From Ectocarpus siliculosus (taxonomy: Eukaryota > Sar > Phaeophyceae > Ectocarpales > Ectocarpaceae), in assembly GCA_000310025.1 (NCBI GenBank), contig FN649735.1, positions 1,796,040 to 1,843,621 of the forward strand: a stretch of 47,582 nt of DNA, given 5' to 3'. A program made the translations under genes and the position numbers. Below, piece after piece: positions 18,736 to 43,300 of the stretch (position 1 is the first letter of the stretch; every line of letters starts with the position of its first letter). A model generated the notes under the pieces. The model ran no database searches, had not been told where the DNA came from, and saw only the letters and a list, made by a program, of their open reading frames with translations.

Positions 18736-21700
18736 CCCTTCCTTCATGGCTTTCGCTAGCTCCGCCTCCAACGCCTTCTTCACCGCCGCCTCCGCGCCCT
18801 CGTCCACAAACATGAAGCGGGGCGAGCTCGGGTCCACGGTAGCCACCTCTACGGGCACGCCCTTCCCCATCGTCGAGCTCAAGTGAACCTGTTTTCGGGG
18901 AGGAAGGGGGGGGCGACGTTGGGGGGGGGGGGGGNNNNNNNNNNNNNNNNNNNNNNNNNNNNNNNNNNNNNNNNNNNNNNNNNNNNNNNNNNNNNNNNNN
19001 NNNNNAGGGAAGGGGAGGGGGGGGGGGGGGGGGGGTACTCTCATGTCAGTAGGCTTCGCAGCGTATTGTATTCAGGCCAGTTGTTATGGAGAAATTTTCC
19101 GATTTGGAATCCGGGGGATCGACAGATAATGCTCCACCACCCCCTAAAAGAAGGAGGTCTGCGTACTGGGCAGCAAGCAGAGAGCACCAAAGCGCTTTGT
19201 CAATTCGTCCTCGCCTCAGACCCCTGTTTGCTATCTAACCGATAAGGCTGTACACTCCACTACTGTGAGCTTCTCGGAGCAAAGTTTGGGCAGCTAGAGT
19301 GCAGTGTGCATAGAGTATGCAATGATATGAAAGCAAAGTCACGATTCCCAATTTGGAATTCCAACCAATTCCAGTTTGGAATTCATTAGGAATTCCCACC
19401 CGGATCGTCCAGCAATTCCAAATTGGAATTCCTATTTTACCAAGCATGGTGAACACACACTCCACCGAGGCTACCCAAACTTGGCTCGAAGAGACTCACA
19501 GCAATGCTCTACGCGGCCTCGAAGGTTTGAATGCAAACGGGTCTCTGTGAGGCGAGTACTGAGTGCCAAAGCGCTTTTGTGAGCTTTTCCATCGAAGTAC
19601 GCAGAACTCCTGCGGCCTCATGGGGGTTTGGATGTAAAAGGTGTAATATCGGGATTCCAAATCGGAAAATTTCTCCATAACAACTGGCCTCAGGAAACAT
19701 GTTGGATAAAGCATGCAATCGGGGAAGTTGGGTTACGGTTAGGGTTAGGGAAATAGGGTCTGCGTACCCCCTCCCTGTTCTATTCCCTTACAATACTGAA
19801 TTTCCGCGAAGGCGGTTCTCTCATGTTTTGCATGCGTTAAGAGGTTAGACCATCGACCACGCGTCCTCGAGAGGACCGAGCGTTGTTGCTCCCACAGGAC
19901 CGATCACCGATATGGCCAATGGTTCCGGAGGGGGGGGGGGGTGTACTCATAGTCGTGCATGCCGTAGTCGTTTGACCATTGACCTCGCATCCCTACAAAG
20001 CCGGGACGGAGCACGCCGGGTTCTCACCGGACCAGGCTCTCACATCACCAAGCGCGAAGCGCCGTGAGGTATTTGGCGAGTCGCATGAAGGGTGAGCTGC
20101 ATCCTGCTAAGGGTGTTAGGCATCTTGTGCTTATTTCCTTGCGTACGGATGACAGCTACGTATGACTTAATTTATTTTCTGGTGCTTTCACTTCCAGAGA
20201 CAGTTGTAAGCACTGTGTAACTGCCTCGAGGAAGCTTGACCATTTTAACACAACGTGGTGCGATCATCCCCCGTTGCGCGGAGTGAGGTTTTTCGACCCC
20301 GCACAACATGATCTACTCGACCATCATTATGGTTACCGCCAAAAGAAAAAACCGAGGTAAAAAAAAAAAGCGGTAACCTGGTTGCCGAGTTCACGAAGTG
20401 AATTGGCTTGTTTTACGACGTCGTTGCCAAGCGACGAAAACCCAATCCCGATGGCAAACACCGAGTGGGGGGCTTGTTTTACAACGTCGTTGCCAAGCGA
20501 CGAAAACCCAAACCCCGATGGCAAAGGTTCCGGAGGGGGGGGGGGGGCAACGTAGGGGATGCAGGGAGGGAAATATTTTCGCGTAGAGCTGTAAGTGCGC
20601 GACCTGCGCCATCGGCATTGTCGCCCCGAAAGGAAAGCCGAGTTGGACGAACCATGACGTGTGTTCGCAGAAACGGCAGGGGAAGGTGGCATGCTGCCGA
20701 TCTCGTTCTTGCCACCCTGACTCAGTCGATGCAACACCGTGGTGCAGACTGCAGGAATCAAATATTTAGACAGGGGATAGGCTGGACACAAATGTAGGTT
20801 GGTCGGAAGGAGGCCTCGACCGAGCGTTGCGGGCATGCCTTGTGAGAACCAGCACTGCAGACCACAAGCGCGCCGTTTTGAGCCTACTGTACCCATCCCC
20901 GACCTTCGTCAAAAGATCATCGGGGAGAAAACCGTGTGCCAATGAGAAAGCGGCCAGCCTGCGCTGAGCCTGCGTGAAAGTACATGGAGAGGTCCGATAC
21001 AGAAAAAACAAGACGCCGGCGGCGACACCCAAGCGGAAAAACAAGCGTGGGAGTATCATATCGACATCTATGCATACTCTTACGAACCGGTGTTTGTGGG
21101 CTCTAACAGAGAATTTTTCCGTGTGTTGCCCGGCGAAGATGACATATTTTTTTATTGGCCGAACGACTTGCGCGGTCGATGCAAACGTTCTCAGACAATA
21201 AAGAAACACGCAGACAAGACTGACGTCTTATCATTGGATAGCACGTCCGAAGCACAAAAAACAAAAACAAGGTCTCAACACACAAACATACACGCACACA
21301 CCTGCGAGATGTATTTCCCCTTGATCACCTCGGGCTTGAGGTTGGAGATAGCAACCATGGTCGCGCGAACATTCTCGATAAGATCCGACCTCGCAAAGCT
21401 CACCTGTCGGCAACAGCAACAACATCAACGACAATGACGTGGCGTAAGAAAAGAGCACAAAACACACACACATAAGGAGACGTGGAAAAAACGAAGTCTC
21501 GGTCATGTCGTAGGCCTCTCTAAGCCGCATCGTCGTGCCCGCTCCAAACAAGACACAAACGAAAGAAAAAAACACGATTGATCATGCCTAGCCTCCCACT
21601 TTCAATCTCGCCTGTCCACCAAAAGCAAAACAACAAGACGTAGCCAAGACGGAAGCAAACGTCGAGAGAACGAGAACGCCCGCGCAAAACCCGCAACTCC

Positions 21701-24762: not shown

Positions 24763-25001
24763 GGCCGCCGCCGCCGCCGCCGCCGCCGCGCGTCCGACAT
24801 CGCCACGAATACAAAACGATTTTTCTCCAAACCTCTGAACTCCTTTAGGTTTCTGCATTGCATTGTGCCATCAATCTGCTTGCGGGAGTTCGAGGAGTGT
24901 GCTCCGAAACGATGAGCGCGAGTTGAGCCTTAGAAAGGGAAACCTGTCCTGACACCGTCGACTGTCTACTATTGTGCCTTGGGTGGGGAGTACGGTAAGA
25001 A

Positions 25002-25204
25002 CCGGAGAGATGACACCCCCGTGTTTGCGTTTTTTTGCAGCGTATTTCTCCACAACTAGGAGGGTGCGAACACCAACCGATACCTCTCAGGAAAGCCCTA
25101 GACGAGATGTTTCCAAAACAGCCCTTTTCGGCAGTGGTACCCCCGTGGTTGTGGAGAAATACGCTACATACAAAAACGCTAACACGGGGGTGCCATCTCT
25201 CCGG
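25002..25204. mobile_element. 203-bp foldback element with ~56-bp inverted repeats
   Basis: CCGGAGAGATGACACCCCCG, TGTTTGCGTTTTTTTGCAGC, GTATTTCTCCACAAC at 25002-25056 pairs with the inverted copy at 25148-25204 with a few mismatches. About 90 bp lie between. No coding capacity; looks like a small MITE. Confidence 0.8.
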
Positions 25205-27509
25205 CTCTTGCGGTAGTGGGGGTGGGCATGTGATGCTCTCCCAGAGTGTGGCTAGGTCAGAGATGACGGAACGCACACAATTGTACGGTGTTGTTGATCC
25301 CGTCGAGAGCTTTCTCCGAAACGTTATCGTTTGATATTTGATATTTGCATAATCTTCGTCGAGGGGGAGTAATCGAGCCCTGGAACTCAGGCCAAAGGAG
25401 GTACGATACCTTCCTGACGCACACACCACGCCTGCAACAAAGTGCAGAGAAAAACACCCATACCGCCGCCAAGAAGCCACGGGAGACTGTTGTGCGTGTT
25501 TGCGCATGCGTTCACCACCACATACGCATAACTCCGTGCATGTCGTTTCACAGCGCGCCAACGAGTCCATCAGACAGCAGCTGCGGCAGAGGCAGCGCCA
25601 GACCGGCAGTTGTTGCTACTGCTACAAATAGCAGGGTTGAAATGGTCCATCCTTGATTTTGGTTGGCTTTGAAAACTTCGGTCGGAAGGACACCCAGCGA
25701 TCACACACGGGACGCATAAGAACAGTTGGGGCAAGAGTGTTGCGCAAGAACAATCCCTCGTAGGTGTTGCACAGAGCAGCGGTTGCAGCGGTTGACGTTC
25801 TCTACCTGTGTGTAGTGGCGTCGTTGCCAGCACCAACATGCGGTGTACCTACGGAAACGTGTTTTGCATGATGCCGGCATACCTCGAGGCACTGAGGGGA
25901 CGCGTGCTTCCATCGACAACGCCATGTTAGCCTAAGAGTGATGCCGTATGGGGCGAGAGAGCTCTGTCTGTGGTGTTGGTCGAAGGTATGTTGGGGAGGC
26001 ATGCAGCAAGGAAGGCTCTTAAGATAAAGGAACACCGCTCAGGCATCAACGTATTCAATACACTGCCAGGTGCTCACCTTTGTGCTGGCCGTGCGCAAGA
26101 ATGTAGAGACCCATGCCTCATCGCAGCTACCAATCGAACGGCGGACGACATAGTACCGTGTTATCCAAGGTGACTGGACTACGCGTGGCGCTGGCACTGC
26201 CTCCCTGCTCTGCTGCTCTCCCCTGCCCCTCCGTGCGGTGTGCGCAGGCGCAGGTTCGACCGCAAATTTGGTAGATGGGGGCTCCGTGATGAATACGGTA
26301 TCCACAACAACTCGACAAAGCGATTCGCGTTTCCCCCCCGCAGGATATCATGAGCCACTCACACCTTCTGCCGCTCTGCTTGCTGCGTCTGCCCTTGACC
26401 AGAAATCTTGACTAGTCAATAGTCAGTCACAGCCGCCCTCCCTCATCATTCTTCGCCAGGGTGTACATGTCCTTCAGGGGAGCAGTCGATGCTTTCTGTT
26501 TGGCGAAAACGACTGAAGAGGAAGATCACGACACCGGCTCTCCTGCAGAGAGCCGGCAGGGGCAACGAACGAGGAACGGGAGTCTTCGATCTCCTGTGGC
26601 GTGTCAGGGTGAAAGCGTTGTTTCCTGGATGGACATCTATGGGGATCCACCCCGTAAGGCAGCGGCAAGTGAGTGGAAAGCGCTCCATGTCTGATTCGAT
26701 TTCATCACATTTTCCCGCAGGCTGGAGCATTAGTCTACTAAATGTCCTTACGGCAGCAACATGTGTACAATAGTCTACGCCACCTGGTCTGTACCAGATT
26801 GTAGATGATGTACTGTACAGTACATCTCTTGTTTGATGAATACCTGGTTGAGAAGGCAGGGCCCCGTTGCTGCATCTCGCCCTGGGCCTCGCACGGTAGA
26901 TGCAGATGTTTCACGCAGCAGTCATGTGCAGCAAGGACTTCGAAAGTTTATTCTGGTACGTTGCAGCAGGCACCCTTGCGTACTTTCGATGTTGGTGTGG
27001 GCTAAACCTAACCGCCGTGGGAGGGACAAAATCCACGAGTTGGGGCAGATCTGTTGACGGGTCGTTCCGACTGACCCGAGATCTGACCAATTTTGCTGCG
27101 GGTCACGGCCTGACCGGCCAATCAGGTTCGACCGGTGGAAAGCCATGTCAATTCCCAGAAAAAGGTTCGCGATACTTGGAACGTGGCAACAGAAGATTTT
27201 CTTGGGCTAGACTGCTGTACACCGCACAACAAAATGCCTCACCCGTGCCTCTCGTAGTTGTTATGGAAAATATACATATAGTAATCTCACAGAAAGACTA
27301 CCCGTTCGAGATATAACCTCAGTCGAAAGGTATGGGTTGAAGTCTTTTCAGTGAGTGGGTGGAAACCGGCTGGAATCTGGGCTTATTTTGAGTTTATTTT
27401 TTTGGCCACGTTGACAACTACGGAAGGATTCACGTCACCAAAACACCCTGTTCCATCTTCTGCGCAATGCAAGGCGCCTGAGAGAGATAACTCTACCGTA
27501 GTTACATTC
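25205..27509. other. Spacer between uL1 and the SET array; no gene seen
   Basis: Several short open frames but no recognisable family motif and no RNA gene. A small palindrome-rich patch lies near 26755-26830 (TGTACTGTACAGTACATC). Confidence 0.5.
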
Positions 27510-27632
27510 CTACTGCATCTCTCGCTCTAGCTCTCGCGTAGTGTCGCGGCACGCTGCGATCCGCTCCTGGGCCTCAGCAGGTTTGGTGCCCTCTCCGTGG
27601 AACTCGGCGATGACCTCTTGGGCCCCGATGGC
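27510..27632 (-). pseudogene. SET exon A copy A1- (N-terminal SET motif)
   Basis: Reads AAIGAQEVIAEFHGEGTKP, then an Ala/Glu/Arg-rich stretch to a stop. Matches EAIGEQEVVAEF of other A copies but lacks the RGFGVFAT part, because the copy is cut at the palindrome centre (27633) where the plus-strand copy begins. Fragment. Confidence 0.6.
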
Positions 27633-27633
27633 A

Positions 27634-27702
27634 GCCATCGGGGCCCAGGAGGTGGTAGCGGAGTTCCAAGGAGAGGTCGTCGACTCGAGTGTGGCATCAT
27701 AG
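27634..27702 (+). pseudogene. SET exon A copy A1+
   Basis: Mirror partner of A1-: AIGAQEVVAEFQGEVVDSSVAS, then TAG. The two copies meet head to head at the perfect 13-bp arms GGGCCCCGATGGC/GCCATCGGGGCCC around one A (27633). Truncated at its 5' side like its partner. Confidence 0.6.
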
Positions 27703-27759
27703 AGGGTCCTGCGACATGGGCTACTGTGCGAGAGCGAGGGCAACACAAGGCCTGTAGGG

Positions 27760-28061
27760 AGAGTTGTCTCTCAGGCGCATGCATTCTGCATACAAGCTAC
27801 AGCAGTGGAACGACGTGCTTTGCCGACGCGGGCGCTTCGTTTGTGAGTTTCGCGATCACCCAACTACCTGTAGTCTCCTTACCTTGTGCTTCTACACGTG
27901 TTCCAACGAATGCGCACCTATGTGGTATTTTTAAACATTGGTACATGCTACGCGTACACCTCAGCTGGCACGTCGACAGCAAACCCCGTCCTTGCCTTGC
28001 TTTGAAAAACATGTTTGTAGAGGAAGAGCAACGTGGCACACTCGTTTTCACGCACTTATAC
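27760..28061 (+). repeat. Array spacer unit D, copy 1
   Basis: Homologous in direct orientation to 34566-34851 (shared TCTCA(A)GGC, CTTTGTATGTGAGTTTCGCA-like donor context, TGCGCACCTATGT, GGCAAACCCCG(T/C)CC, GAAGAGCAACGTG). In both places it follows exon A copies. A possible small exon (about 27775-27842) ends at a GTGAGT donor, but its phase does not fit exon B, so no coding claim is made. Confidence 0.65.
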
Positions 28062-28383
28062 TTTCAAGCACAAGCAGGGTTGAATTTGACGGTGTGTTGC
28101 CCTTGATTTGCTTTGCTGTCCAGCACATCATACGTATGCGACAGCAGCAACCATACCTCACGTTAACACGGCGTGGGTGGATGGTATGATAGCGTGCTGT
28201 GAAAGCACGTCGTTTCGGGTACGCAGATGTTCGCCAGTCAGCCCTCTCTCCGTTCCCAACAACACTGTCAAGTTTACACAATGCTCGCAGTACGCTCGAC
28301 CAAGTAATATCACCCATCCCATCCCATCCAACTGACTGACATAGAGACCTAGCCTACCGTTGGAAGCATGGTACGCTGCTCAC
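28062..28383 (+). repeat. Array spacer unit E, copy 1
   Basis: AAGCAGGGTT...CAGCAGCAACCATACC, CACGGCGTGGGTGGATG, GTTTCGGGTACGCAG, then ATCACCCATCCCATCC up to the donor end of exon B1-. Further direct copies: 29140-29328 (partial), 29688-29992, 31640-31952, 32340-32600, 34850-35035. No inverted copy seen. Confidence 0.8.
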
Positions 28384-28494
28384 CGTGCAGAGGTAAACGT
28401 TGGGTGAACACGAATGGTCCAGGAACCGAGCTGGGTACCCCTTTAGCAGGGCATCCAGGTAGACGGGGTCGTCTCCCACTTGTACTTTGCACCC
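28384..28494 (-). pseudogene. SET exon B copy B1- (open)
   Basis: 111 bp, acceptor GGCAG, donor GTGAGC, phase 0/0. Reads GCKVQVGDDPVYLDALLKGY, then PARFLDHSCSPNVYLCT. The usual Asn of NHSC, which helps hold the methyl donor S-adenosylmethionine, is Asp. Open frame, but no intact partner exons lie in colinear order. Confidence 0.75.
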
Positions 28495-28508
28495 CTGCCT
28501 CATGGTAG

Positions 28509-28618
28509 GAATGCGTGGTCCAAGCCGGGGATGAACCCGTGTGCTTGGGCTGGATGGTGAAGGGCTACCCCTCCTGGTTCTTTGACTATTCATGCGACCA
28601 AACGTGCAGCTCTACACT
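28509..28618 (+). pseudogene. SET exon B copy B1+ (diverged)
   Basis: Inverted partner of B1-, starting 14 bp from it. Reads ECVVQAGDEPVCLGWMVKGY, then PSWFFDYSCDQTC. The NHSCxPN core is lost (DYSCDQT), so it should be inactive. Confidence 0.7.
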
Positions 28619-28779
28619 GTGAGAGTTGGTGAGAATTGTGCAGTTCATCCACCGGGAGGCTAGATCTCTTTAGCCGTCAGTTGGATGGGGTGGGTGTTAC
28701 TACTTTGTCGAGCGCACTGAGAGCATCATGTGATCATGTTTGAAGGTCTATTTACTTAGTGTGTACATATTTGTACAGG

Positions 28780-29130
28780 CGGGCGGCAAGCGAACCCAGG
28801 AAGATTGGATGTTTTTTTTAGATGCAAAGACAGGAGAACGGTATCTTGTTGCGAGAGCACCCCTTGCTACAATTGTGTTTAGTTGACCTTGTTTTTGGAG
28901 TGAAGCCGTTGGTCGGGCTTTCTGTCGTGTAACCGAGAGCTGTGCTGTATAGCGCCCCCCATTTCGCGCCGTGCAAAGCCATGTTTGACCTATTATAGGC
29001 AGTTCTCTTCTTCTCCGTACACATAATCTACGCCGTGATTCCACAAGGGTCAGCCCGAAAACGCGGTTGGAAGATTATCTTAGCACGGCGCCGATCTGGG
29101 GGAGCGTGACCCTTGATTTTTTCCGGGGGT
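28780..29130 (+). repeat. Array spacer unit F, copy 1
   Basis: Begins TGTACAGGCGGGCGGCAAGCG and continues with CCGTTGGTCGGGCTTTCTGT, GAGAGCTGTGCTGTATAGCG, TCTACGCCGTGATTCCACAA, GGGTCAGCCCG. Direct copies at 30398-30745 and, more diverged, 33058-33480. Always lies between the last B pair and the next C or A block. The first bases (GGKRTQEDW in one frame) follow a plausible acceptor but are not conserved enough to call an exon. Confidence 0.8.
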
Positions 29131-29328
29131 TATGTACTCTCTTGTGCCTCAGGCGTGTCAATTAGAAGAATAGCAACGTCGCGCCATCCGAATTCACACA
29201 CTTCTTGTCCAAGCAGGGTTTCTTGCCATTGCTTTTCTTCGCTACCAAACACATGTACGTCGGCAGCATCACTACGAATAGTTACTTTTTTAGTCTATCT
29301 ACTGCTGGAGCCATGGTACGGTGCTCAC

Positions 29329-29439
29329 CGTGTAGAGGTAGACGTTAGGATTGCACGAGTGGTTGAAAAGCCTCGCTGGGTACCCCTTCCTCATGAGGTC
29401 AACGTACAAGGGGTCGTCCCCCAGTTGCACGATGCACTC
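29329..29439 (-). CDS. SET exon B copy B2- (intact motif exon)
   Basis: 111 bp between GCCGCAG and GTGAGC, phase 0/0. Reads ECIVQLGDDPLYVDLMRKGY, then PARLFNHSCNPNVYLYT, a textbook SET core: NHSC with the following Pro-Asn forms the pseudoknot and cofactor pocket. The best-preserved B copy. Flanking exons on the same strand (C1- upstream, B1- downstream) are not in functional order, so a product cannot be asserted. Confidence 0.7.
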
Positions 29440-29461
29440 CTGCGGCAGCGATTGGCCGCAG

Positions 29462-29572
29462 GGATGCGTTGTTCAGGTAGGGGACGATCCGTTACATGTT
29501 GATTGCAAGGTGAAGGGATACCCGGCGAGGCTCCTGAACCACTCGTGCACCCCAAACGTCTACCTACACACG
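29462..29572 (+). CDS. SET exon B copy B2+ (intact motif exon, mirror of B2-)
   Basis: Exactly 111 bp again, phase 0/0, acceptor GCCGCAG, donor GTTGAG. Reads GCVVQVGDDPLHVDCKVKGY, then PARLLNHSCTPNVYLHT; about 27 of 37 residues match B2-. The two acceptors stand back to back across a 22-bp spacer that is itself a hairpin (TGCGGC...GCCGCA). The pyrimidine tract needed upstream of this acceptor would have to lie in the antisense of B2-, which makes efficient splicing doubtful. Confidence 0.7.
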
Positions 29573-29992
29573 GTTGAGCAGCGTGCCATGGTTCCGATGG
29601 TAGATACATATTGCCAGTCAGTTACACGAGAAGGATGATACATTATCGATGCTCCCAACTATGTGAACGTGTTTGTCACTTTCAAGTCCAAGCAGGGTTC
29701 AAGAAGAAGCTTTGCTGTCACACACACGCTACGTATGCACCAGCAGCAACAATACCCAACGTAAACGTGGTGGACACGGCGTGGGTGGATGCTATTGTAG
29801 CGTGCTGTGCATTCACTTCGTTTCGGGTACACGGACTCGTCAGTCAGCCCTCTTTCCCTTCCCGACGACAACACAATCAAGTTTACACAATGCTCGCATT
29901 ACGCTCGACAAAGTAATATCACCCATCCCATCCCATCCAACTGACTGACATAGAGACCTAGCCTACCGTTGGAAGCATGGTACGCTGCTCAC

Positions 29993-30097
29993 CGTGTAGA
30001 GGTAAACGTAAGGGGCGCAGGAGGGGTTGGTTGGCTGGGTACCCCTTCAGCATTCATCCAGGTATAGGGGGTCGTCTCCCACTTGTACTATGCACCC
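29993..30097 (-). pseudogene. SET exon B copy B3- (frameshifted)
   Basis: Starts GCIVQVGDDPLYLDE, then a frameshift leads to a stop; it ends with a readable APYVYLYT and donor GTGAGC. It is 105 bp instead of 111. The NHSC core reads NPSC. Confidence 0.7.
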
Positions 30098-30134
30098 CTG
30101 TGGCAGCGATGACGCGGTCTCATCGGAGCCGTAG

Positions 30135-30245
30135 GAGTGCGTGGTCCAAGCAGGGGATGAGCCCGTGTGCTTCGACTGGATAGTGAAGGGCTACCCCTCC
30201 CGTTTCTTTGACCATTTATGAGACCCAAATGTGTAGCTCTGCACG
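30135..30245 (+). pseudogene. SET exon B copy B3+ (two stops)
   Basis: 111 bp. ECVVQAGDEPVCFDWIVKGY, PSRFFDHL, stop, DPNV, stop, LCT, donor GTGAGA. Very close to B1+, so the B1 and B3 pairs share a recent duplication. Confidence 0.7.
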
Positions 30246-31035
30246 GTGAGAACTGTGCAATGTGTCCACCGGGAGGCTTGATCTCTAAAAGTACAGCAGT
30301 CAGTTGGATGGGATGGGTGATACTACTTTGTCGAGTGAAAGCAATATGCGATCGTGTTTGAAGTCAATTTAATCAGTGTGTGTGTATATCTGTACAGGCG
30401 GGCGGTAAGCGCACCCAGGAAGGTTGTATGTTTTTTTCTTTACTTTAGCTGCAAAGACGGGAGAGACGGTATCTTGCTGCGCACCCCCTGGCAAAAATGG
30501 GGGCTCCATTCATCGCCCGTCGAGAACACCCCTTGCGACTATTGATTCTGGTTGACTTTGTTTTTGTAGCGAAACCGTTGGTCGGGCTTTCTGTCGTGTG
30601 CTCGAGAGCTGTGCTGTATAGCGCCCCGACTTCGTACGGTGCAAAGCCATGTTTGACCTAGGCAGTGCTCTCCTTCTCCGTACACTTAGTCTACGCCGTG
30701 ATTCCACAAGGGTCAGCCCGCAAACGCGTTTTGATGCCCCCCACCAAGAAGAGTGTCATTGTACACGCAAGCGCCGATCCGCGACTTTTGTTCTTTTTCC
30801 GAAGCAGCTGCCTCTGTTCATGGGCCGGCCAGTGAGCGCGGAGGATGTAAGAAAAACAAGACAATGAAACGACCCCGTTGTCCGGCAGAGACTTGCAGCA
30901 GTTTCCTCTTTCTATTGATGACTCGGTCACAGCGGTCGATTTTCGTTTTTCTTCTCATAGACAAAAGTCAAGGTACAACTTGTGCACACGCGCCTCTCGC
31001 CCCCCCCCCCTCCTCCGTGTATCCTTTTCTTCGCG

Positions 31036-31110
31036 CGTGTGACCGCCGGTAAGGGGGGCTCGCAACAAAAGCGAGTGAGGGTGTTCTCGATGAGGGACAT
31101 CGCCGCGGGA
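31036..31110 (+). pseudogene. SET exon C copy C1+ (truncated)
   Basis: TAGKGGSQQKRVRVFSMRDI, AAG, then sequence of the inverted partner takes over. The GEELxFSY end with the SET tyrosine is missing, because the copy is cut where it meets C1-. Confidence 0.65.
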
Positions 31111-31129
31111 GTCGTGCCCCGTGCCGCAC

Positions 31130-31259
31130 ACGATGGGTCATATGGCCGATGTTGTCCAGCTCCGGGGTACGAGAAGCACAGCTTCTCTCCCTCATTGATG
31201 TGTTTCAAAGTGAGCATCCTCACTCGGTTCGTTTGCGCGGCCCCTTTGCCGGCGACTAC
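31130..31259 (-). CDS. SET exon C copy C1- (intact C-terminal SET exon)
   Basis: Acceptor TTTCACACAG, then VVAGKGAAQTNRVRMLTLKH, INEGEKLCFSYPGAGQ. Has the Gly-Glu-x-Leu-x-Phe-x-Tyr motif whose Tyr closes the SET active site. The frame stays open but runs into the antisense of C1+. Together with C1+ it forms an imperfect palindrome, arms about 30932-31105 and 31135-31420. Confidence 0.65.
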
Positions 31260-31493
31260 CTGTGTGAAACTAAGGGTGCGAAAGAAACCATTCGGGTAGG
31301 GTACACGCAGGCGGTGGGGGGAGAGAGGGGTGTGCACCAGTTGCGGCTTGAGCATAAAAACAAACATGTGTGTATATAAGCAAACAAGTATCGACCGTTG
31401 TGACCGACTCGCCAATGGAACGAGGATGGCGACTGAGAGGCGACGGGATGTGCTTGCAGGGCGCCGGAGGGTTACGGTCTCATGTTTGCATAC

Positions 31494-31590
31494 GCGCATG
31501 CCAATGACAGGGGGTTTGTTGTTTTCGCCACGGAGGCAATCGGTGAGCACGAGGTCGTCACCCAGCTCAAGGGGGAGGTCATGGACTCGC
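31494..31590 (+). pseudogene. SET exon A copy A2+
   Basis: YAHANDRGFVVFATEAIGEH, EVVTQLKGEVMDS: an open SET N-terminal motif. The only A copy without an inverted partner. Its downstream end (CCTGTGCTTCAGACGTGTC) recurs at 29135-29155, which marks a lost A copy there. No intact B or C follows on this strand. Confidence 0.65.
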
Positions 31591-31952
31591 CTGTGCTTCA
31601 GACGTGTCTATTAGAAGGAACAGCAACGTCGCGCCATCCGAGTTCACACGCTTCAAGTTCAAGCGGGGTTCGAGAAGAGGGTTCCTTGCCCTTGCTTTGC
31701 TTTTTGCTGCCGAACGCATGCTACGTGGGCAGCAGCAGCAGCAACAATTCCCAATGTGAACGTGGTGGACACAGCTTGGGTGGGGGGGTATGATAGGGTC
31801 CTGTGAAATCACTTCGTGGCGGGTACGCAAGATCGTCAGTCAGCACAAGCACGATTACGTACTGCTCCCAGCACACTCGACAATGTGTCATCCATCCCTT
31901 CTAACTGACGGATAGGCGGCACTGCTGTTTGGAACCATGGCACGGTGCTCAC

Positions 31953-32062
31953 CGTGTGGACGTACATGTTTGGTGTACTTTAGTGGTTGATAACCTAACC
32001 GGGTACCCCTTCGGCATACAGTCAACGAACAAGAGGTCGTCCCCAACTTGAACGATGCACTC
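31953..32062 (-). pseudogene. SET exon B copy B4- (1-bp deletion)
   Basis: 110 bp instead of 111. ECIVQVGDDLLFVDCMPKGY, PVRLS, then the frame shifts inside the NHSC core; CCAAACATGTACGTCCACAC still matches PNMYVHT in another frame. Donor GTGAGC kept. Confidence 0.7.
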
Positions 32063-32096
32063 CTGAGGCACCGAGTAGCCCCCATCGCTGCCGCAG

Positions 32097-32211
32097 GGGT
32101 GTGTTGTCCAAGTTGGGGAGACAAACCCCTTGCATGTTGACTGCATGGTGAAGATATACCCGGCAAGGCTCATGAACCAGTTATGCACCCCAAACGAGCT
32201 ACGTACACACG
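32097..32211 (+). pseudogene. SET exon B copy B4+ (frameshifted)
   Basis: GCVVQVGETNPLHVDCMVKI, YPARLMNQLCTPN, then an insertion shifts the frame; NHSC reads NQLC. Inverted partner of B4-, closest to B2+. Confidence 0.7.
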
Positions 32212-32534
32212 GTTGAGCAGAGTGCCATGGTCCCAACAAAACAGACTTGTAGACAACTATTCATCAGTCAATTAGCCGGGATGGGTGATACAATGTCGAG
32301 TGTACTTGAAGCATTTTGTCAACGTGTTTGAAGTCACATTCAAGTCCAAGCAGGGTTCAAGTAGAAGATTTGCTGTCACACACATGCTACGTATGCACGA
32401 GCAGCAACCGTACCCAACGTCAACGTGGTGGACACGGGCGTCGGTGGATGATATGATGTAGCGTGCGGTCAAATTAGCTCTTTTGGGGTACGCAGATTCG
32501 TCTTCATTCTTCCAGTACACTCTTTTGTTTCATG

Positions 32535-32571
32535 TGAAGACAACAACAACAACAACAACAACAACAACACT
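32535..32571. repeat. (CAA)n microsatellite
   Basis: About ten CAA/ACA triplets in a spacer of the array. Confidence 0.85.
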
Positions 32572-32658
32572 TCACAATGTATCGCCCATCCCATCGAACT
32601 GACTGCAGTAGAGATCTCCCCTTATTTAAATGTTGGCCACACACACATCTTGCCCCAC

Positions 32659-32758
32659 CGCGTTTCGGGTCGCAGGAATGGTTGAATGCCCGGCATGGGT
32701 TGCCCTTCAGCATGCAGCCCACAAATAGGGGGTCGTGTCCAACTTGCATAACGCACCC
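32659..32758 (-). pseudogene. SET exon B copy B5- (3' end damaged)
   Basis: GCVMQVGHDPLFVGCMLKGN, PCRAFNHSCDPK, then the NVYLYT end is lost (100 bp instead of 111). NHSC is intact. Confidence 0.7.
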
Positions 32759-32792
32759 CTGCGGACGCGATTAGATCCCGTCGCTGCCGCAT

Positions 32793-32904
32793 GGCTGCGT
32801 TGTCCAAGTTGGGGATGATTCCCTGTTCTTGGAAGCCCGTGATGTTGGGCTACCCGTGCCGAGCGTTCAACCACTCCTGCCACCCGAACGTGTTTATGTA
32901 CACG
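32793..32904 (+). pseudogene. SET exon B copy B5+ (acceptor lost, frameshift)
   Basis: The acceptor position reads GCCGCAT instead of GCCGCAG. Starts CVVQVGDDSLFLEA, then a frameshift; the other frame gives GYPCRAFNHSCHPNVFMYT up to a GTGGGC donor. Inverted partner of B5-. Confidence 0.7.
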
Positions 32905-33691
32905 GTGGGCAAGTTGTGTGTGCGGTGAGCATGGAACAAGGGGATATATCTACTGCAGTCAGCTGGGATAGGATGTGTGATACATTGTCGAGCGTACTGA
33001 GAGCGTTGCGCGGACGGGTTTCAAGTCTAATATTCTCAGTTTTTTTGTTATCTGTACAGATGGGCGGTAAGCGTGCTCAGGAAGGTTGGGCATGTGTTTT
33101 ATTACTGCAACAACGATAGGAGAAAGGGACGGGGCGGGGTCCTTTCATCGCCCCTCCAGAGCACCCCTTCACGACGAATGTGTCTCTTTTGCCACGTTTT
33201 GTTGTAAACCGTTGGTCGGGGTGTATGCCCTGTGCCCGAGAGTTCTGCTGCATATCGCCTCCGCTTTCGTTGGAGAAAGGAAGTGGACATGTTGCACGTT
33301 GTGTCGACCCCCTCTCGACGTGTTGAGCCACATTATTTCTAGGCCGTGCTTCTTCCCCATGTGCACGCAGAGGGTGCACCGTCAATTCACGGATCAGCCC
33401 ACATACGAGTGTGATTCCCCCCACCAAAGACATTACACGCACGCCGCCCATCTGGGGGGGCGTGGATCCTAATATTTTCCTTATTAAGCAACTCTGTTCT
33501 TGGGCCAGCCGCCTAGCGCGGAGGATGCCATGAACAAAGACAATCACACGAACTCGTTTGTCCGGCAGAGACTTGCAGTAACACCTCTTTCCATAGGTCG
33601 GTCACGGTCGAACTTGTGTTCTTTTTCAAGAACAAGGCGCAACAGGTGCGCCCGCCCCTCCCCCCCCGTCGTGTACCCTGTTGTTATTGCG

Positions 33692-33793
33692 ACGATGGCT
33701 GCCGGTAAGGGGGACTCGGAAGAGTAGCGCGTCTTTGTCTTCTCTCTCAGGGACATCGCAGGGGGCGAGGAGCTGCATTCTACTCGGACCCCG
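33692..33793 (+). pseudogene. SET exon C copy C2+ (stop and frameshift)
   Basis: MAAGKGDSEE, stop, RVFVFSLRDIAGGEEL, then a frameshift separates GEEL from FYSDP. Equivalent to C1 but broken. Confidence 0.65.
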
Positions 33794-33794
33794 C

Positions 33795-33935
33795 GCCGCC
33801 CATGATCGCTCTGATGAGCGATGATGTGCGAGACGGGGCACGAGCAGAATGAAGCTCCTCGCACTCTTCCCTCAGAGAGAAGACGAAGACGTGTTACTTT
33901 TCCGAGTCCCCCTTACCGGCGGTCAACCGCTGCGT
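33795..33935 (-). pseudogene. SET exon C copy C2- (broken)
   Basis: Mirror partner of C2+: AGKGDSEK, stop, HVFVFSLREECEELHS in one frame. Together they form an imperfect palindrome, arms about 33590-33790 and 33795-34070. Confidence 0.6.
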
Positions 33936-34159
33936 GGAACAAAGGATGCGAAAGAGAGCCTTTGGGGAGGGTACAAGAAGGGGGGGGGGCGTGTGCAACA
34001 CTTGTACCTTGTGTAGAAAAACAAGACAAGAAAATTATCGACCGCTGTGACCGGGTCACCAATAGAAAGAGGTTGGTGCCGCAGAGGCGAGCGGATGTGC
34101 TTGCGGGGTACCGGGCAGTTGCGGCCTGATGTCTCAGCGCAAGGAGATTTTGGGGCGGC

Positions 34160-34310
34160 GGGTGGGAGGGCACCGCCTGATTGAAGTAGTCCACATGTAT
34201 GCATGTGGATGTGCCAATGACAGGGGGATTGGATTTTTCGCCACGGAGGCAATCGGCGAGCAGGAGGTTGTCACCGAGTTCAAAGTGGGAGGTCCCGTGG
34301 ACGTGCTTGT
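34160..34310 (+). pseudogene. SET exon A copy A3+
   Basis: Open from an ATG at 34129; GCANDRGIGFFATEAIGEQE, VVTEFKVGGPVDVL. SET N-terminal motif with a damaged EFxGE (EFKVGG). Faces A3- tail to tail. The following B6+ is broken. Confidence 0.6.
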
Positions 34311-34349
34311 GCCGAAGAGAGCAGGTGGCTGCGTACCACCGCCACCCGC

Positions 34350-34482
34350 TTTTTTTGCTTCGGAGGGATCAATGCTCTCTCCCACGAACTCCGCCACGAC
34401 CTCCTGCTCCCCGGTGGCCTCTGTGGCGAAAACTCCAAACCCCCTGCCATTGTCAACATTTCCGCGACAATTACAAGAGGAG
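34350..34482 (-). CDS. SET exon A copy A3- (best-preserved N-terminal exon)
   Basis: CRGNVDNGRGFGVFATEATG, EQEVVAEFVGESIDPSEAKK: canonical start of a SET domain (GxGVFAxxxI...EFxGE, cofactor-binding strand). Its inverted partner A3+ lies 40-60 bp away. Downstream on the same strand come damaged B5- and B4-, then intact C1-, so an A-B-B-C order exists on the minus strand but with broken B exons. Confidence 0.55.
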
Positions 34483-34565
34483 CGGGTGAGGTACTGGTCT
34501 GGTGTAGAGTGGACTATTTTTTGAGAATGACGGCAAGACAGGTATATAGCTGGGGCTCTCTCTCT

Positions 34566-34851
34566 CTCTCTCAAGGCACCTGAATTCTGCGTAACGCTCA
34601 TGGTGGAAGTGGGACAATGTTGTTCACTTTGATGCGCGCTTTGTATGTGAGTTTCGCAGTCACCCAAATGCATGTTATCTCCATGTTGTATTTCTGTACA
34701 TCCAAAACCTCTCCGCACCTATGTTATTAATTGTCGAACATTGCATTGCGATACTTCAACCGACGCCTCCACGGCAAACCCCGCCCGTGCCTTGAAGAGC
34801 ATGTCTGTTGAAGAAGAGCAACGTGAGGTCCCCCGTATTCACACATTTCAA
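34566..34851 (+). repeat. Array spacer unit D, copy 2
   Basis: Direct copy of 27760-28061, again just downstream of the A pair and followed by unit E. A short CT run (34559-34573) precedes it. Confidence 0.65.
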
Positions 34852-35108
34852 TGCCAAGCAGGATTGAAGTAGAGGGTTCCTTGCCCTTGGCCTTGTTTTG
34901 CTGCAGTATGCTTCGCCGGCAGCAGCAGCAACCACGTCCAACGTACACGTGGTGGACACGGCGTGGGTGGATGGTATGGTAGGGTTGTGTCAAACCAGTT
35001 CGTTAGGGGTACGCCGATTCGTCAGTCAGCCCCCCACCCCGTCTGTCCCTCCCGCCAACACCATTTCTTTCCCTTTCCTGGACTCCCCCGATCTCATCGC
35101 TGCCTCAG

Positions 35109-35221
35109 GGACGCATCGTATAATTTTGGGATGACCTCATGTAGTCGGGACGGTATCATCCAGGGCTACCCGTCCCGGACGTTCAGCCATGCATGCAACC
35201 CGAGCATGTTTTACGTACACG
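35109..35221 (+). pseudogene. SET exon B copy B6+ (unpaired, frameshifted)
   Basis: The only B copy with no inverted partner. It has a strong pyrimidine tract and acceptor (CATCGCTGCCTCAG) and donor GTGAGC, but the first half is out of frame; IIQGYPSRTFSHACNPSMFY replaces the usual core (SHAC for NHSC). It suggests what an unmirrored B exon looked like. Confidence 0.65.
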
Positions 35222-35434
35222 GTGAGCAGCGTACAATGCCTCCCGCGGTAAGACTAGATCTCTGCATCAGTCAATCGGGACTCCTTGCGCAGTACCACCC
35301 TCTTTGGTGCCCACCCCCCAACTGTTTGCCCGCCGCTTCCGTCCTCGACCCTTACAAGAATTGCCGGGATTGCAGTCAGAACATCCGTGACGACAACGTT
35401 GCCTCGCAGACATGCCGTTGCCCCGCAGGGAACT

Positions 35435-36208: not shown

Positions 36209-36310
36209 TTCCTTTTCCTCCCTTTTCCTACAACCCGTAGTTTTACCTTCCGTTCACGTTTCCTTTTCCTCCCTTTTCCTACAACCCGTAGTTTTACCTT
36301 CCGTTCACGC
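36209..36310 (+). repeat. 51-bp perfect tandem duplication
   Basis: TTCCTTTTCCTCCCTTTTCC, TACAACCCGTAGTTTTACCT, TCCGTTCACG occurs twice in a row, starting at 36209 and 36260. Confidence 0.95.
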
Positions 36311-40000: not shown

Positions 40001-43000
40001 TCCGCGCGTCTTCCGTCTCGTCTGCTGGGTCTGCTGGGTCCGCTGGGTCTGCTGCGGGTCTGCTGGTCTAGACGTGAGTTAAAGGGCCCAGAGATTTTTA
40101 TTGCCTCGTGATGTACAATGTTTTGTGCTTGTCGACGGAGCTACTGCTGCATCGATCCACGAATGCGACATAGAAACCACCCTTTTGGATAGCGCGGGCG
40201 CCGTGATCTGTACGAGGTGAACGCCGCTGGTGCCGAATCTTGTTTAGTTTCAATAGTTCGAACTACCAGTGTGTGGGTTAGCTCGGCCCTTCCCAAAAGG
40301 TTTATCGGGGGTGGCCGTGCTTACCCTGATCCCCAAGTGTGTGTGCTTGCCTCACGCAGCTACAACTGTTTTCACTCCCAGCCGACTGCGCTCGCCCCCT
40401 CTTCCTATCTCGACCAACGACCCAGCCGGTCGATCCCCCCACCTGCCCCACGGGCCTCACTCATCAAATATACTGGCCACATATTAGACGGTATTGAAAG
40501 CACGTTACTCACAACGATACTTATTTTCCGTACGTTAGGTAAACCCCCTGGACCATCTTTTTCAAAGCTCGCCTACGCCACAGCGAAGAGAGTGGTGGCT
40601 GCCCAAGACCGCGACGTTCGAAGCGTCTCGTCTCGAGCTTTTCTTCGGTGAGAGCTTTGTCTCGTCGAGAGCTTTGTCTCGTCGAGAGCTTGTTCACGTC
40701 AAGAACATTTTCTCGTGGAGAGTCCGAAACGTTCTCTCTAGAGGTTTGACCGCTCTTTGAAAAAAAATAATGTACTCTCGAAGACGGATCTGTTGTGCGC
40801 GGAAGTATATTCCGCCGCATTTCGACCGTTACAATTATTCTTGTGTAGCGCGCGCAGCATGCTGATGGCCCTTTGTATTTATTTCTAAATAACGCATCGA
40901 ATTATCTCTACATTGTCCACAGATCTCTTCTTCTCGTCGGAAAACGTGAACTGTAAGTTACCTCCGATCTTGATCAATTTCCGCGGAAGTTCCCTACCTA
41001 CAGCACCTTGGAATTGAAGCTCCGTTCAATGTACAATAGGATGGGCACCCCTTCAATGCCGGGGTGGCTGTGTGTCTATTTATTTAGTCTGCCAATAAAG
41101 AGGTGCGGGACACCTCTCTGCAACCTACCCGGCGGAGGCTTATTCCGCCGCACTTTGTCGTTACATTTATTTGATATGTTTATACAAGCGTGCGCGCGCC
41201 TCGCTTTTATATTCTTTTTTGGCGTTGTGACCCCTTTCAACCCCTTCCGAAATATAGATTTGCCGCTGTGTGTGACCAGTTTTCTTTTGTCTATTCTCTA
41301 CCTGTCTCAATGTACATCCGGCACACCAGAGGAAACCTTATTTACTTTTTGAACGGTGATTGGGATTAGCAGTCGTCTCGTTGGTGTGCTGTATGAAGTA
41401 TACTATTATACAGCAGCGTCAGGCCGCCGAGGTTGCTTAGCGTGACACAGCACCGTGGCGTGTGTTGTGTGACACACGTGTGCGCTGATGATTGACTGGC
41501 TTTCTTCTGTTCGGAACACATCATCACCCTTCTGTCTCTGATTCGTGTACAGGCGCATGTTCTATGTTCATCCTGTGACAGCGAACGCCGTAGGGTGCAA
41601 CAGGAATTAAAGTACGCACATTTCGTTCACCCAGAAATTTGATTGATGTTATTTTGCGAATCTTCATCTCGTCTGTGCTCAAATAATATACATGAGATTT
41701 GAGTAGGCCATGGAGCCGGTCCTTGCTTGTGGCTTTGATGAAAAAAGACACCTTGACAAAATAAATACTTCGAATTATGTTATCTCAGAGAAATAGCACG
41801 CTTGGCTGAAGCAAGCTGTGTTGCCGATGGCCGGAAAGCACTCGGTGGCAGCAAATGTTGTGTGTGCGTTTTTCGCTTCGCTTCGCACGGTCGATGATCC
41901 TGACTCCAGCTGGTGTTAGCATGTTACGGTGCATACCATTTGATCCAGTGATCCCGTTTGCCTTGTCTCTTTGGTTCCATTCCACTCTTGACAGAGCCGT
42001 CCACCACCATGTCCAGGCCCCCCGCTACCGGGGCTTCCGGGGCAGTAGAGGCATCAGGGGCATCAAGGCAAGGGCACTACTGACAGACACATCTCCTACG
42101 CACGTCGAGATTTGTTTTTTGAGCTGTTTCGTGTCGTGCTGTACTTTATTTATTGTGCAATTGACACTAAAAAAGTATATAGCCCACACGCAAATCACCA
42201 TCGTTGATTTATCTACGTGTTACAACATGGGCGGCATTAGAGTCTGTGGGCAACTTTTCTCGAAGGGTAAACGACGCGTCAGGGTATTCCCTGGTCGAAA
42301 AGCGACGCAGCTGGGTACGTACTTTTCATCAGCATGACATGAGTCTAACTGGTTGGAGACGCCCGCTTTGAATCTTCCACGTCACAATATAGCCCGGAGT
42401 ATTCCTTGCCGCGGCTACTTTTCCCTGCAATTTTTTACCTGATGTTCGGAAATGTACCCAGCCCTGACGGGAGATGGGTGCCTTCCATCGGCCATTTTCT
42501 CCGCAGAAATCACTTTCTGTTCCCATCAAAGGACACTAGAATATGAACCTTCCAGCTCCAAGCAAATGATAGCATCCGACATCCGAGACACACTCTTCCA
42601 TGATTGAACACAACATGGTTGACAAGTCGACTGAAACAGGAGTGGTGCTAAGGTAGGAGGGTGCATTCTTGGGGGGTGAGATCTCACACGTTTGGGAAAA
42701 ATGAGGAATACGTAGACCTGTTTCGGTGATGTTACGGTGGTACACGATATTTGTTTGGAGCTGGAATATTCGTGTTTTGGTGTCCTTTCGTTGGAACAGA
42801 GATTGATTTCTGAGGAGAAAATGGCCAGTGGAAGGGACCCATTTCCCGTCAAGGCCGGGTACATTGCCGGAAATCAGGTGTCATTTTGCAGGGAAAAATG
42901 GCCACGATAGGGAGTACTCCGAGATGCTTTGTGACGCGGAAGGGAAAACGTAGGCGTAGACCAATCTGCTAAGCTCATGTCACGCTGACGAAAAGTGCGT

Positions 43001-43300
43001 ATCCGGCTGAGTCGGGTTTCGACCAGGGTATGCCCTGACGTGTTGTTTACCCTTCCCCGAAACATTCCCGACGTAGGACATTTCACACATCTCACATTTT
43101 ACGGAGATCGGGTATATACCTGGGGTAGCACACAAAGTAAATTATCGTGAATCACAACTGACATCCGAGTTTAACACCTCAAGTCTGAACGACTCAGAAT
43201 AGAAACTTGTGCTTGTCCAACCATGCCTCCTACGTTTCCGAAGTTTGGTGTACAGTGTGTGTGTATTTCGTGTGGTGTTTGTTTTGGCGTGAACCCCTGA
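37031..43300. other. Long stretch without a recognisable gene
   Basis: Scattered open frames under 200 codons with no family motif. Two visible repeats: TCGTCGAGAGCTTTGTCTCG-type units near 40640-40690, and a diverged pair near 40800-40860 and 41130-41195 sharing TATTCCGCCGCA(T/C)TT and a GCGCGCGC-rich end. No RNA gene called. Confidence 0.5.

What the first reader, a model, noticed from the sequence alone, without database searches (positions are those of the whole stretch)
27510..35221. SET-domain exons duplicated as local mirror images along a tandem array
Six B, four A and four C exon copies or fragments of one SET family lie in 7.7 kb, and most sit next to an inverted copy of the same exon (A1, B1, B2, B3, B4, B5, C1, C2, A3 pairs). 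The spacer units D, E and F recur only in direct orientation. The palindromes are therefore not remains of one large inverted duplication; exon-scale inversion-duplication came first, or recurs, and tandem amplification followed. I know of no named process that mirrors exons but not introns. Transcription of either strand would give strong hairpins, so small-RNA production or palindrome-driven gene conversion are possible roles.
Basis: partly seen in the sequence, partly recalled or inferred. Interest (0 to 1): 0.9.

Follow-up and report, generated by a model that had tools for sequence, protein, structure and literature searches.

The report
Mirrored SET exons in an alga
In a brown alga, worn-out copies of a chromatin-modifying gene carry exons that sit beside inverted copies of themselves, a pattern that recurs at several places in this one gene family and may be only a scar of faulty DNA copying or may make hairpin RNAs.

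Summary
Window 27.5-35.3 kb holds a decayed tandem array of SET methyltransferase exons (A, B, C). Nine of its 11 exon sites are abutting or nearly abutting palindromes (arms about 45-260 nt, 60-85% alike; E 4e-21 to 1e-53 for eight, C1 2e-5). Intron bodies match each other directly (19 hits), never inverted. Corrections: arms also hold splice sites and 33-119 nt of intron (B), and I count 6 B, 3 A and 2 C sites. The mirroring is not confined to the array: of 13 loci of this subfamily found, 8 show a mirrored A, B or C exon (three less securely), with the same few axes recurring; four intact genes show none, nor do nine stretches around other SET hits. Arms diverge partly like coding sequence, sometimes share a stop codon, and have exchanged tracts. 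Best reading: recurrent fold-back inverted duplication in SET gene copies, spread by duplication, remodelled by gene conversion, now mostly pseudogenic. A hairpin-siRNA role fits the exon bias, but no reads were available, compensatory changes are near chance, and the array's longest exact match to an intact exon is 15 nt. Organism: a brown alga, judged by its EsV-1-7 domains.

The parts
27560..27706 (.). A1: mirrored exon A (SET N-terminal piece), arms reading outward, axis inside the exon at 27633
   Evidence: 27590-27676, 85%, E 4e-21; 6 arm differences over 14 codons, 5 at third positions
27832..28244 (+). intron 1 body, direct orientation
28281..28726 (.). B1: mirrored exon B (NHSCxPN-motif exon), arms reading outward; the inverted arm has an open frame
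28760..29090 (+). intron 2 body, direct
29296..29606 (.). B2: mirrored exon B, both arms with an open frame
29700..29870 (+). intron 1 element, direct
29904..30335 (.). B3: mirrored exon B; left arm shares a ~100-nt tract (98 of 100 columns) with the B1 left arm (28298-28397 / 29907-30006)
30360..30880 (+). intron 2 body, direct
30904..31426 (.). C1: mirrored exon C (GEEL..Y piece), arms reading inward, intron 2 end included
31481..31596 (+). A2: single exon A, not mirrored
31605..31844 (+). intron 1, direct
31846..32330 (.). B4: mirrored exon B
32369..32502 (+). intron 1 element, direct
32574..32988 (.). B5: mirrored exon B; its two arms are each other's nearest relatives (99/99)
33010..33560 (+). 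intron 2 body, direct
33583..34073 (.). C2: mirrored exon C (core 33701-33920, 79%; outer arms 33583-33679/33968-34073, 71%, E 7e-5); both arms have a nonsense codon at the same place
34212..34455 (.). A3: mirrored exon A, arms reading inward
34600..35060 (+). intron 1, direct
35090..35228 (+). B6: single decayed exon B, not mirrored

Best explanation
The array is a tandem run of pseudogenised copies of a KMT2-like SET/post-SET methyltransferase gene of a brown alga. SHOWN: exon-centred inverted duplications, with axes in or just beside exons, occur in the array and at other loci of the same subfamily; some predate the tandem duplication; arms and copies look as if they had exchanged sequence. 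INFERRED: a 3' end in or next to an exon folded back on itself, or switched to the opposite strand or to a paralogue, and copied outward for some tens to about 260 nt, giving an abutting inverted copy; tandem and segmental duplication spread these palindromes; gene conversion between arms and from live paralogues kept some arms alike and gave others a coding-type divergence. A hairpin RNA would form if the array is transcribed, but no present function is needed to account for the array.
For: Abutting arms. Direct-only spacers. Mirrored exons at L042, L043, L046, L048, and less securely L041, L044, L045. Recurring axes, by inspection: A outward (A1, L046, L048), A inward (A3, L043, L044), B just before the acceptor (B1-B5, L042), C inward (C1, C2), post-SET end inward (L041, L045). 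A nonsense codon at the same place in both arms of C2 and of L042 B: copying or conversion after inactivation. Holding all left B arms together is rejected (p 0.0003), all right arms too (p 0.02) (groups tested after a first tree). C2 arms are sisters (84/91), the C1 inverted arm falls with L022, L044 and L038 (82/87, weak). C161 exon A(+) carries a 40-nt exact tract of the oppositely oriented exon A of L048, and its other arm is 92.6% like the L048 mirror arm.
Against: It does not say why exons, and this subfamily, are singled out. Third-position excess between B arms (45/34/85 differences at codon positions 1/2/3 over five non-independent pairs; 29/17/49 for B1, B2, B5, p 0.0003) is not what a local copy of a dead exon gathers; it needs conversion from live genes or arms from different live paralogues. 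Simple self-mirroring of the B1/B3 pair is not rejected (p 0.17), nor one clade of all ten array B arms (p 0.15). No fresh event or junction was available.
Confidence: 0.55

Rival explanations
1. Hairpin-RNA silencing loci: mirrored exons are kept because hairpin transcripts make siRNAs against spliced SET mRNAs, which would explain why exons are mirrored; the array would be a tandem hairpin cluster like hp-CG4068 of Drosophila.
For: Exon bias and restriction to one subfamily; strong predicted folds (14 of 14 palindromes, z -7 to -32), though that follows from the palindromes; in 7 of 9 array palindromes the inverted arm is nearer the intact proteins (sign test about 0.18); arm transitions in the array favour G-U on the + strand RNA, 137 to 98 (p 0.013; controls 62 to 65); L046, the L048 mirror arm and L044 have 21-40 nt exact matches to intact exon A; Ectocarpus has Dicer, Argonaute and RDR homologues (PMC4513859, passages read).
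Against: Longest exact match of the array to the 18 intact coding exons tested is 15 nt. Double changes at paired positions are near chance and seldom keep the pair. No Rfam match. The wobble excess falls to 116 to 90, p 0.08, without the copy B3, is absent in C1 and B4, is 39 to 30 (p 0.34) at the five other loci, and could come from transcription-linked mutation. No reads.
Confidence: 0.22
2. Arms of different origin: an inverted exon from a second live SET gene was joined beside the homologous exon of the first by template switching between paralogues.
For: Third-position excess between arms (eight other palindromes 28/32/50, p 0.02); B1/B3 left arms group with L022 (76-79) and the C1 inverted arm with L022, L044, L038 (82).
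Against: B5 arms are sisters (99), C2 arms are sisters (84) and C2 and L042 arms share stops; the groupings with L022 are weak; C1 and L046 show no third-position excess.
Confidence: 0.15
3. Convertible or invertible exon cassettes: both orientations carry complete exons that are swapped into the live gene.
For: Most B arms keep acceptor and donor, and B2 has two open arms; tract exchange at C161/C26.
Against: A and C axes cut the exon, so a flip would not give a whole exon; many array arms are frameshifted or stopped.
Confidence: 0.04
4. Inverted-repeat transposon (MITE or fold-back element) that captured exons.
For: The genome has dispersed palindromic repeats (window 24991-25215 with L026, L034, L035).
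Against: All 7 genome matches of a 401-base array piece and all 8 of the intron element lie at SET loci; no common terminal repeat was seen across A, B and C palindromes.
Confidence: 0.02
5. Assembly artefact.
For: None found; an N gap lies at 18935-19005, outside the array.
Against: Arms and copies differ by roughly 15-40%; same pattern on contigs C10, C23, C26 and C161.
Confidence: 0.02

Closest known systems
Drosophila hairpin-RNA (hpRNA) loci, e.g. the tandem hp-CG4068 cluster, Nmy/Tmy (PMC10317233, passages read)
   Same: Inverted repeats proposed to derive from their targets; tandem hairpins; rapid turnover
   Different: Here no siRNAs, transcripts or targets are shown; arms are much decayed; several exons of one gene are mirrored one by one
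Inverted-duplication model of plant miRNA genes (PMC3237417, passages read; Allen et al. 2004 seen only as a citation)
   Same: Adjacent convergent or divergent copies of a gene piece
   Different: Separate palindromes for A, B and C exons, in tandem; no miRNA shown
Fold-back inverted duplication at double-strand breaks (PMC10622511, abstract and section list read)
   Same: Fold-back priming gives inverted copies
   Different: The yeast events make dicentric chromosomes; here arms are at most about 260 nt and interstitial
Brown algal LRR exon shuffling in ROCO genes (PMC11378527, passages read)
   Same: Exon-scale duplication in brown algal gene families
   Different: The words opposite, reverse strand and antisense do not occur in its text; target here is a chromatin enzyme
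Gene conversion in sex-chromosome palindromes (recalled, no call)
   Same: Arm-to-arm exchange
   Different: Arms there are long and nearly identical

Membership tests
SET/post-SET lysine methyltransferase family (gene of origin) | SET profile over the joined exons of an intact relative | tested here: met
   PF00856, E 6e-20, over cut-off; best solved chain KMT2A, E 1e-17
SET/post-SET lysine methyltransferase family (gene of origin) | array copies are intact coding genes | tested here: not met
   stops, frameshifts and missing exons; single exon arms such as B2 are open
hpRNA locus | long inverted repeat able to fold | tested here: met
   z -7 to -32
hpRNA locus | siRNA-length exact complementarity to a target exon | tested here: not met
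   array: longest 15 nt to 18 intact coding exons; met by L046 (40), L048 mirror arm (24) and L044 (23)
hpRNA locus | Dicer-dependent small RNAs and target repression | not testable with these tools
   no reads held
Rfam-listed miRNA or structured RNA | match over gathering score | tested here: not met
   0 matches in the window and in 7 loci
MITE or fold-back transposon | dispersed copies outside the gene family | tested here: not met
   7 of 7 and 8 of 8 matches at SET loci
MITE or fold-back transposon | target-site duplications | not tested
   not examined
Fold-back inverted duplication | arms abut or have a very short spacer | tested here: met
   spacers 1, 8, 4 nt for A1, B2, C2; A3 and C1 have longer poorly matching centres
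Fold-back inverted duplication | short inverted repeat at the axis of the unduplicated ancestor | tested here: inconclusive
   CTGC-C-GCAG at the B acceptor in several copies (read) and a 30-nt palindrome in exon A of the C161 gene some tens of nt from the A-outward axis; no statistic made

The most novel reading that the evidence does not exclude
In a lineage reported to lack PRC2 and DNA methyltransferases, a brown alga controls, or once controlled, a SET methyltransferase subfamily with hairpins mirrored exon by exon from the genes themselves and renewed by repeated inverted duplication and gene conversion: an RNAi feedback on chromatin enzymes, with this array as an ageing tandem hairpin cluster.
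Probability: 0.18. Interest if true: 0.85.

Novelty: new variant of a known kind. Interest (0 to 1): 0.52.

Why it matters
Short inverted duplications are usually discussed one at a time, as fresh rearrangements or as miRNA precursors (recalled). Here one gene subfamily carries many, of different ages, on separate exons, beside unmirrored live genes. That is a natural series for dating how hairpins form, spread, convert and decay, and a test of whether a selected product (siRNA against spliced mRNA) or a local DNA feature makes exons the target. Brown algae are reported to lack PRC2 and DNA methyltransferases while SET proteins are abundant, including two brown-algal families (PMC13076208, passages read); whether this subfamily is one of those two was not tested. 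Hairpin control of such genes would be of real interest.

Tried and rejected
Rejected: one big inverted duplication (no inverted spacer hits). A minus-strand gene: inverted exons run A-C-B-B-C-B-B-B-A, no A-B-C order (by inspection). One founding palindrome per exon without later exchange: AU tests against it for B. RNA-structure selection by compensatory change: near chance (B1/B3 4 double changes against 3.3 expected, B2/B4 26 against 19.3; 1 and 6 keep the pair; comparisons with B5 higher, 36-53 against 25-42). Strand-wobble test: p 0.013, 0.08 without B3, kept as a hint only. Rfam: nothing. Palindromes outside the array (19074-19690, 24991-25215, 42262-43055, L025, L026, L037) were looked at as possible mirrored exons of other genes: 24991 and L026 belong to a dispersed repeat, the others show no recognisable coding arms by eye (not searched against Pfam). 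DOT1 as a control gave only 5 hits. Family controls were judged by eye on listed hits, which are the best-scoring ones and capped, so decayed mirrored copies could be missed. Three weak exon hits that match other SET genes (C2:113441, C16:5579201, C13:478874) were left out of the 13 loci.
Full report
What it is. The window is G000:C10:1796040-1843621 of a 189-Mb genome in 492 contigs. A search for the EsV-1-7 domain scored 150 candidates of 880 and listed 150 matches, with none in 14 control genomes; that so many mark a brown alga is recalled. Exon A, B and C translations are the N-terminal piece, the NHSCxPN piece and the GEEL..Y/post-SET piece of a SET domain. The joined exons of the intact relative L022 match Pfam SET (E 6e-20) and KMT2A chains best (E 1e-17).

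Anatomy of the array. On the + strand the order is A1 B1 B2 B3 C1 A2 B4 B5 C2 A3 B6, with intron 1 pieces before B and intron 2 pieces after most B, as in the intact gene L022, which lies 2-8 kb beyond the window's end (exon A at C10:1845.7 kb, B 1850.7 kb, C 1851.5 kb). Nine of these 11 sites are palindromes; A2 and B6 are not. Arms abut or nearly so in A1, B2 and C2 (1, 8 and 4 nt); A3 and C1 have poorly matching centres. B arms start just before the splice acceptor, run through exon and donor, and end 33-119 nt inside intron 2. C1 arms cover part of exon C and the end of intron 2. Between spacers there are 19 direct and 0 inverted matches.

Order of events. A unit B-B-C-A is duplicated (29306-31485 with 31930-34132, 66%, E 4e-147), and B1 with intron 2 is a copy of B3 with intron 2 (28110-29071 with 29709-30734, 77%). 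Palindromes therefore predate these duplications at B and C. A2 is plain where A3 is mirrored, and A1 and A3 point opposite ways, so mirroring occurred more than once, or was lost at A2. Within B the tree pairs B1L-B3L, B1R-B3R and B5L-B5R; holding all left arms together is rejected (p 0.0003), all right arms too (p 0.02); holding the four B1/B3 arms together (p 0.17) or all ten array arms together (p 0.15) is not. The groups were named after a first tree. C2 arms are sisters (84/91) and have a nonsense codon at the same place; the C1 inverted arm falls with L022, L044 and L038 (82/87, weak). B1L and B3L agree in 98 of 100 columns over one stretch and much less on both sides. These are marks of gene conversion or of separate events.

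Divergence between arms. In exon B the arm-to-arm differences at codon positions 1, 2, 3 are 11/8/20, 7/5/17, 9/9/21, 7/8/15 and 11/4/12 for B1-B5, in all 45/34/85; the pairs are not independent, and B1, B2, B5 alone give 29/17/49 (p 0.0003). Eight other palindromes give 28/32/50 (p 0.02); C1 (9/7/9) and L046 (3/8/4) show no third-position excess. Much of the difference between B arms was thus built up under coding constraint, presumably in live paralogues, before it reached the arms. In 7 of 9 array palindromes the inverted arm scores better against intact proteins (exceptions B4, C2; sign test about 0.18).

Elsewhere in the genome. Exon searches and fetched stretches give 13 loci of this subfamily; three weak hits to other SET genes were left out. 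Mirrored: the array; L042 exon B (1517-1756, 77%); L043 exon A (1693-1895, 70%); L046 exon A (432-694, 83%) and L048 exon A (2700-2887/2977-3168, 84%), the latter beside an intact-looking gene. Less secure: L041 (palindrome 2627-2790, 71%, E 4e-13, but its identification as the post-SET piece rests on a short motif), L045 (same motif, arms short, E 0.003), L044 (inverted exon A pieces, scrambled; 2389-2463/2825-2899, 83%, E 1e-16, plus a short adjacent piece). Not mirrored: the intact genes L022, L038, L040, L009; L047 has a lone exon C. Axes fall into a few recurring types, which suggests descent of some palindromes by duplication, or repeated use of the same fold-back points. The loci outside the array were found with exon probes, so only the array is unbiased about the exon bias; there the four axis types all lie in exons or within about 30 nt of them (by inspection).

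Controls. In 20 ten-kb stretches of C10 the same scan gave six inverted repeats at E 1e-6 or better, one of them abutting (L026, part of a dispersed repeat), none recognised by eye as a mirrored exon. Nine stretches of about 3 kb around other SET-domain hits (L008, L010-L017) gave none at E 1e-3. By eye, no opposite-strand hits lie within 500 bp of each other among the listed 138 kinase, 150 EsV-1-7, 37 NB-ARC and 5 DOT1 matches and the listed part of 181 ankyrin matches; these lists hold the best-scoring candidates only.

Function. Predicted hairpins are strong but that follows from the palindromes. For selection on the RNA: + strand G-U transitions exceed the reverse 137 to 98 in the array (p 0.013), against 62 to 65 in six control repeats; at five other mirrored loci 39 to 30 (p 0.34); without B3 the array gives 116 to 90 (p 0.08). 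Against: compensatory changes are near chance, the array's longest exact match to 18 intact coding exons is 15 nt, and no Rfam family matches. L046 (40 nt), the L048 mirror arm (24) and L044 (23) do match intact exon A sequences, so silencing stays possible there.

Literature. Searches listed no title on mirrored SET exons or on exon-by-exon mirroring in a tandem array; the lists were capped and the library holds open-access papers only. Closest are hpRNA loci, the inverted-duplication model, and fold-back inverted duplication.

Verdict. Real, unusual, found through much of one SET subfamily, and partly explained: recurrent fold-back type inverted duplication with gene conversion in a decaying gene set. 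The cause of the exon and family bias is open, which is the interesting part.

Noticed in passing
window 29737-29850 (also 28120-28244, 31703-31844, 32369-32502, 34919-35032): An intron 1 element is shared with intact SET genes, with a 32-nt exact match to the C161 gene; its 8 listed genome matches all lie at SET loci. It may be more conserved than the exons.
   Followed up: partly
L039 2724-2753 (C161): A 30-nt palindrome inside exon A of an intact gene, some tens of nt from the A-outward mirror axis: a possible fold-back point.
   Followed up: partly
window 19074-19690: A 617-bp abutting palindrome (67%) with no relative among the held stretches, followed at about 19730 by TTAGGG-like repeats and preceded by an N gap at 18935-19005.
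   Followed up: partly
window 24991-25215; L026 8740-8964; L034; L035: A dispersed palindromic repeat, MITE-like.
   Followed up: partly
window 42262-42567 / 42749-43055; L025 46-1143; L037 2973-3699: Spaced inverted repeats with arms of about 300 nt, 78-94% alike, nature unknown.
   Followed up: no
L039+L046 (C161) and L048 (C26:1699501-1703500): Copies of one SET locus, 93-94% identical over 1.8 and 1.0 kb; C161 has an extra 1.2 kb holding another inverted exon A. Could be haplotypes or a recent duplication.
   Followed up: partly
window 36210-36310: A direct tandem repeat of about 50 bp just downstream of the array (read).
   Followed up: no
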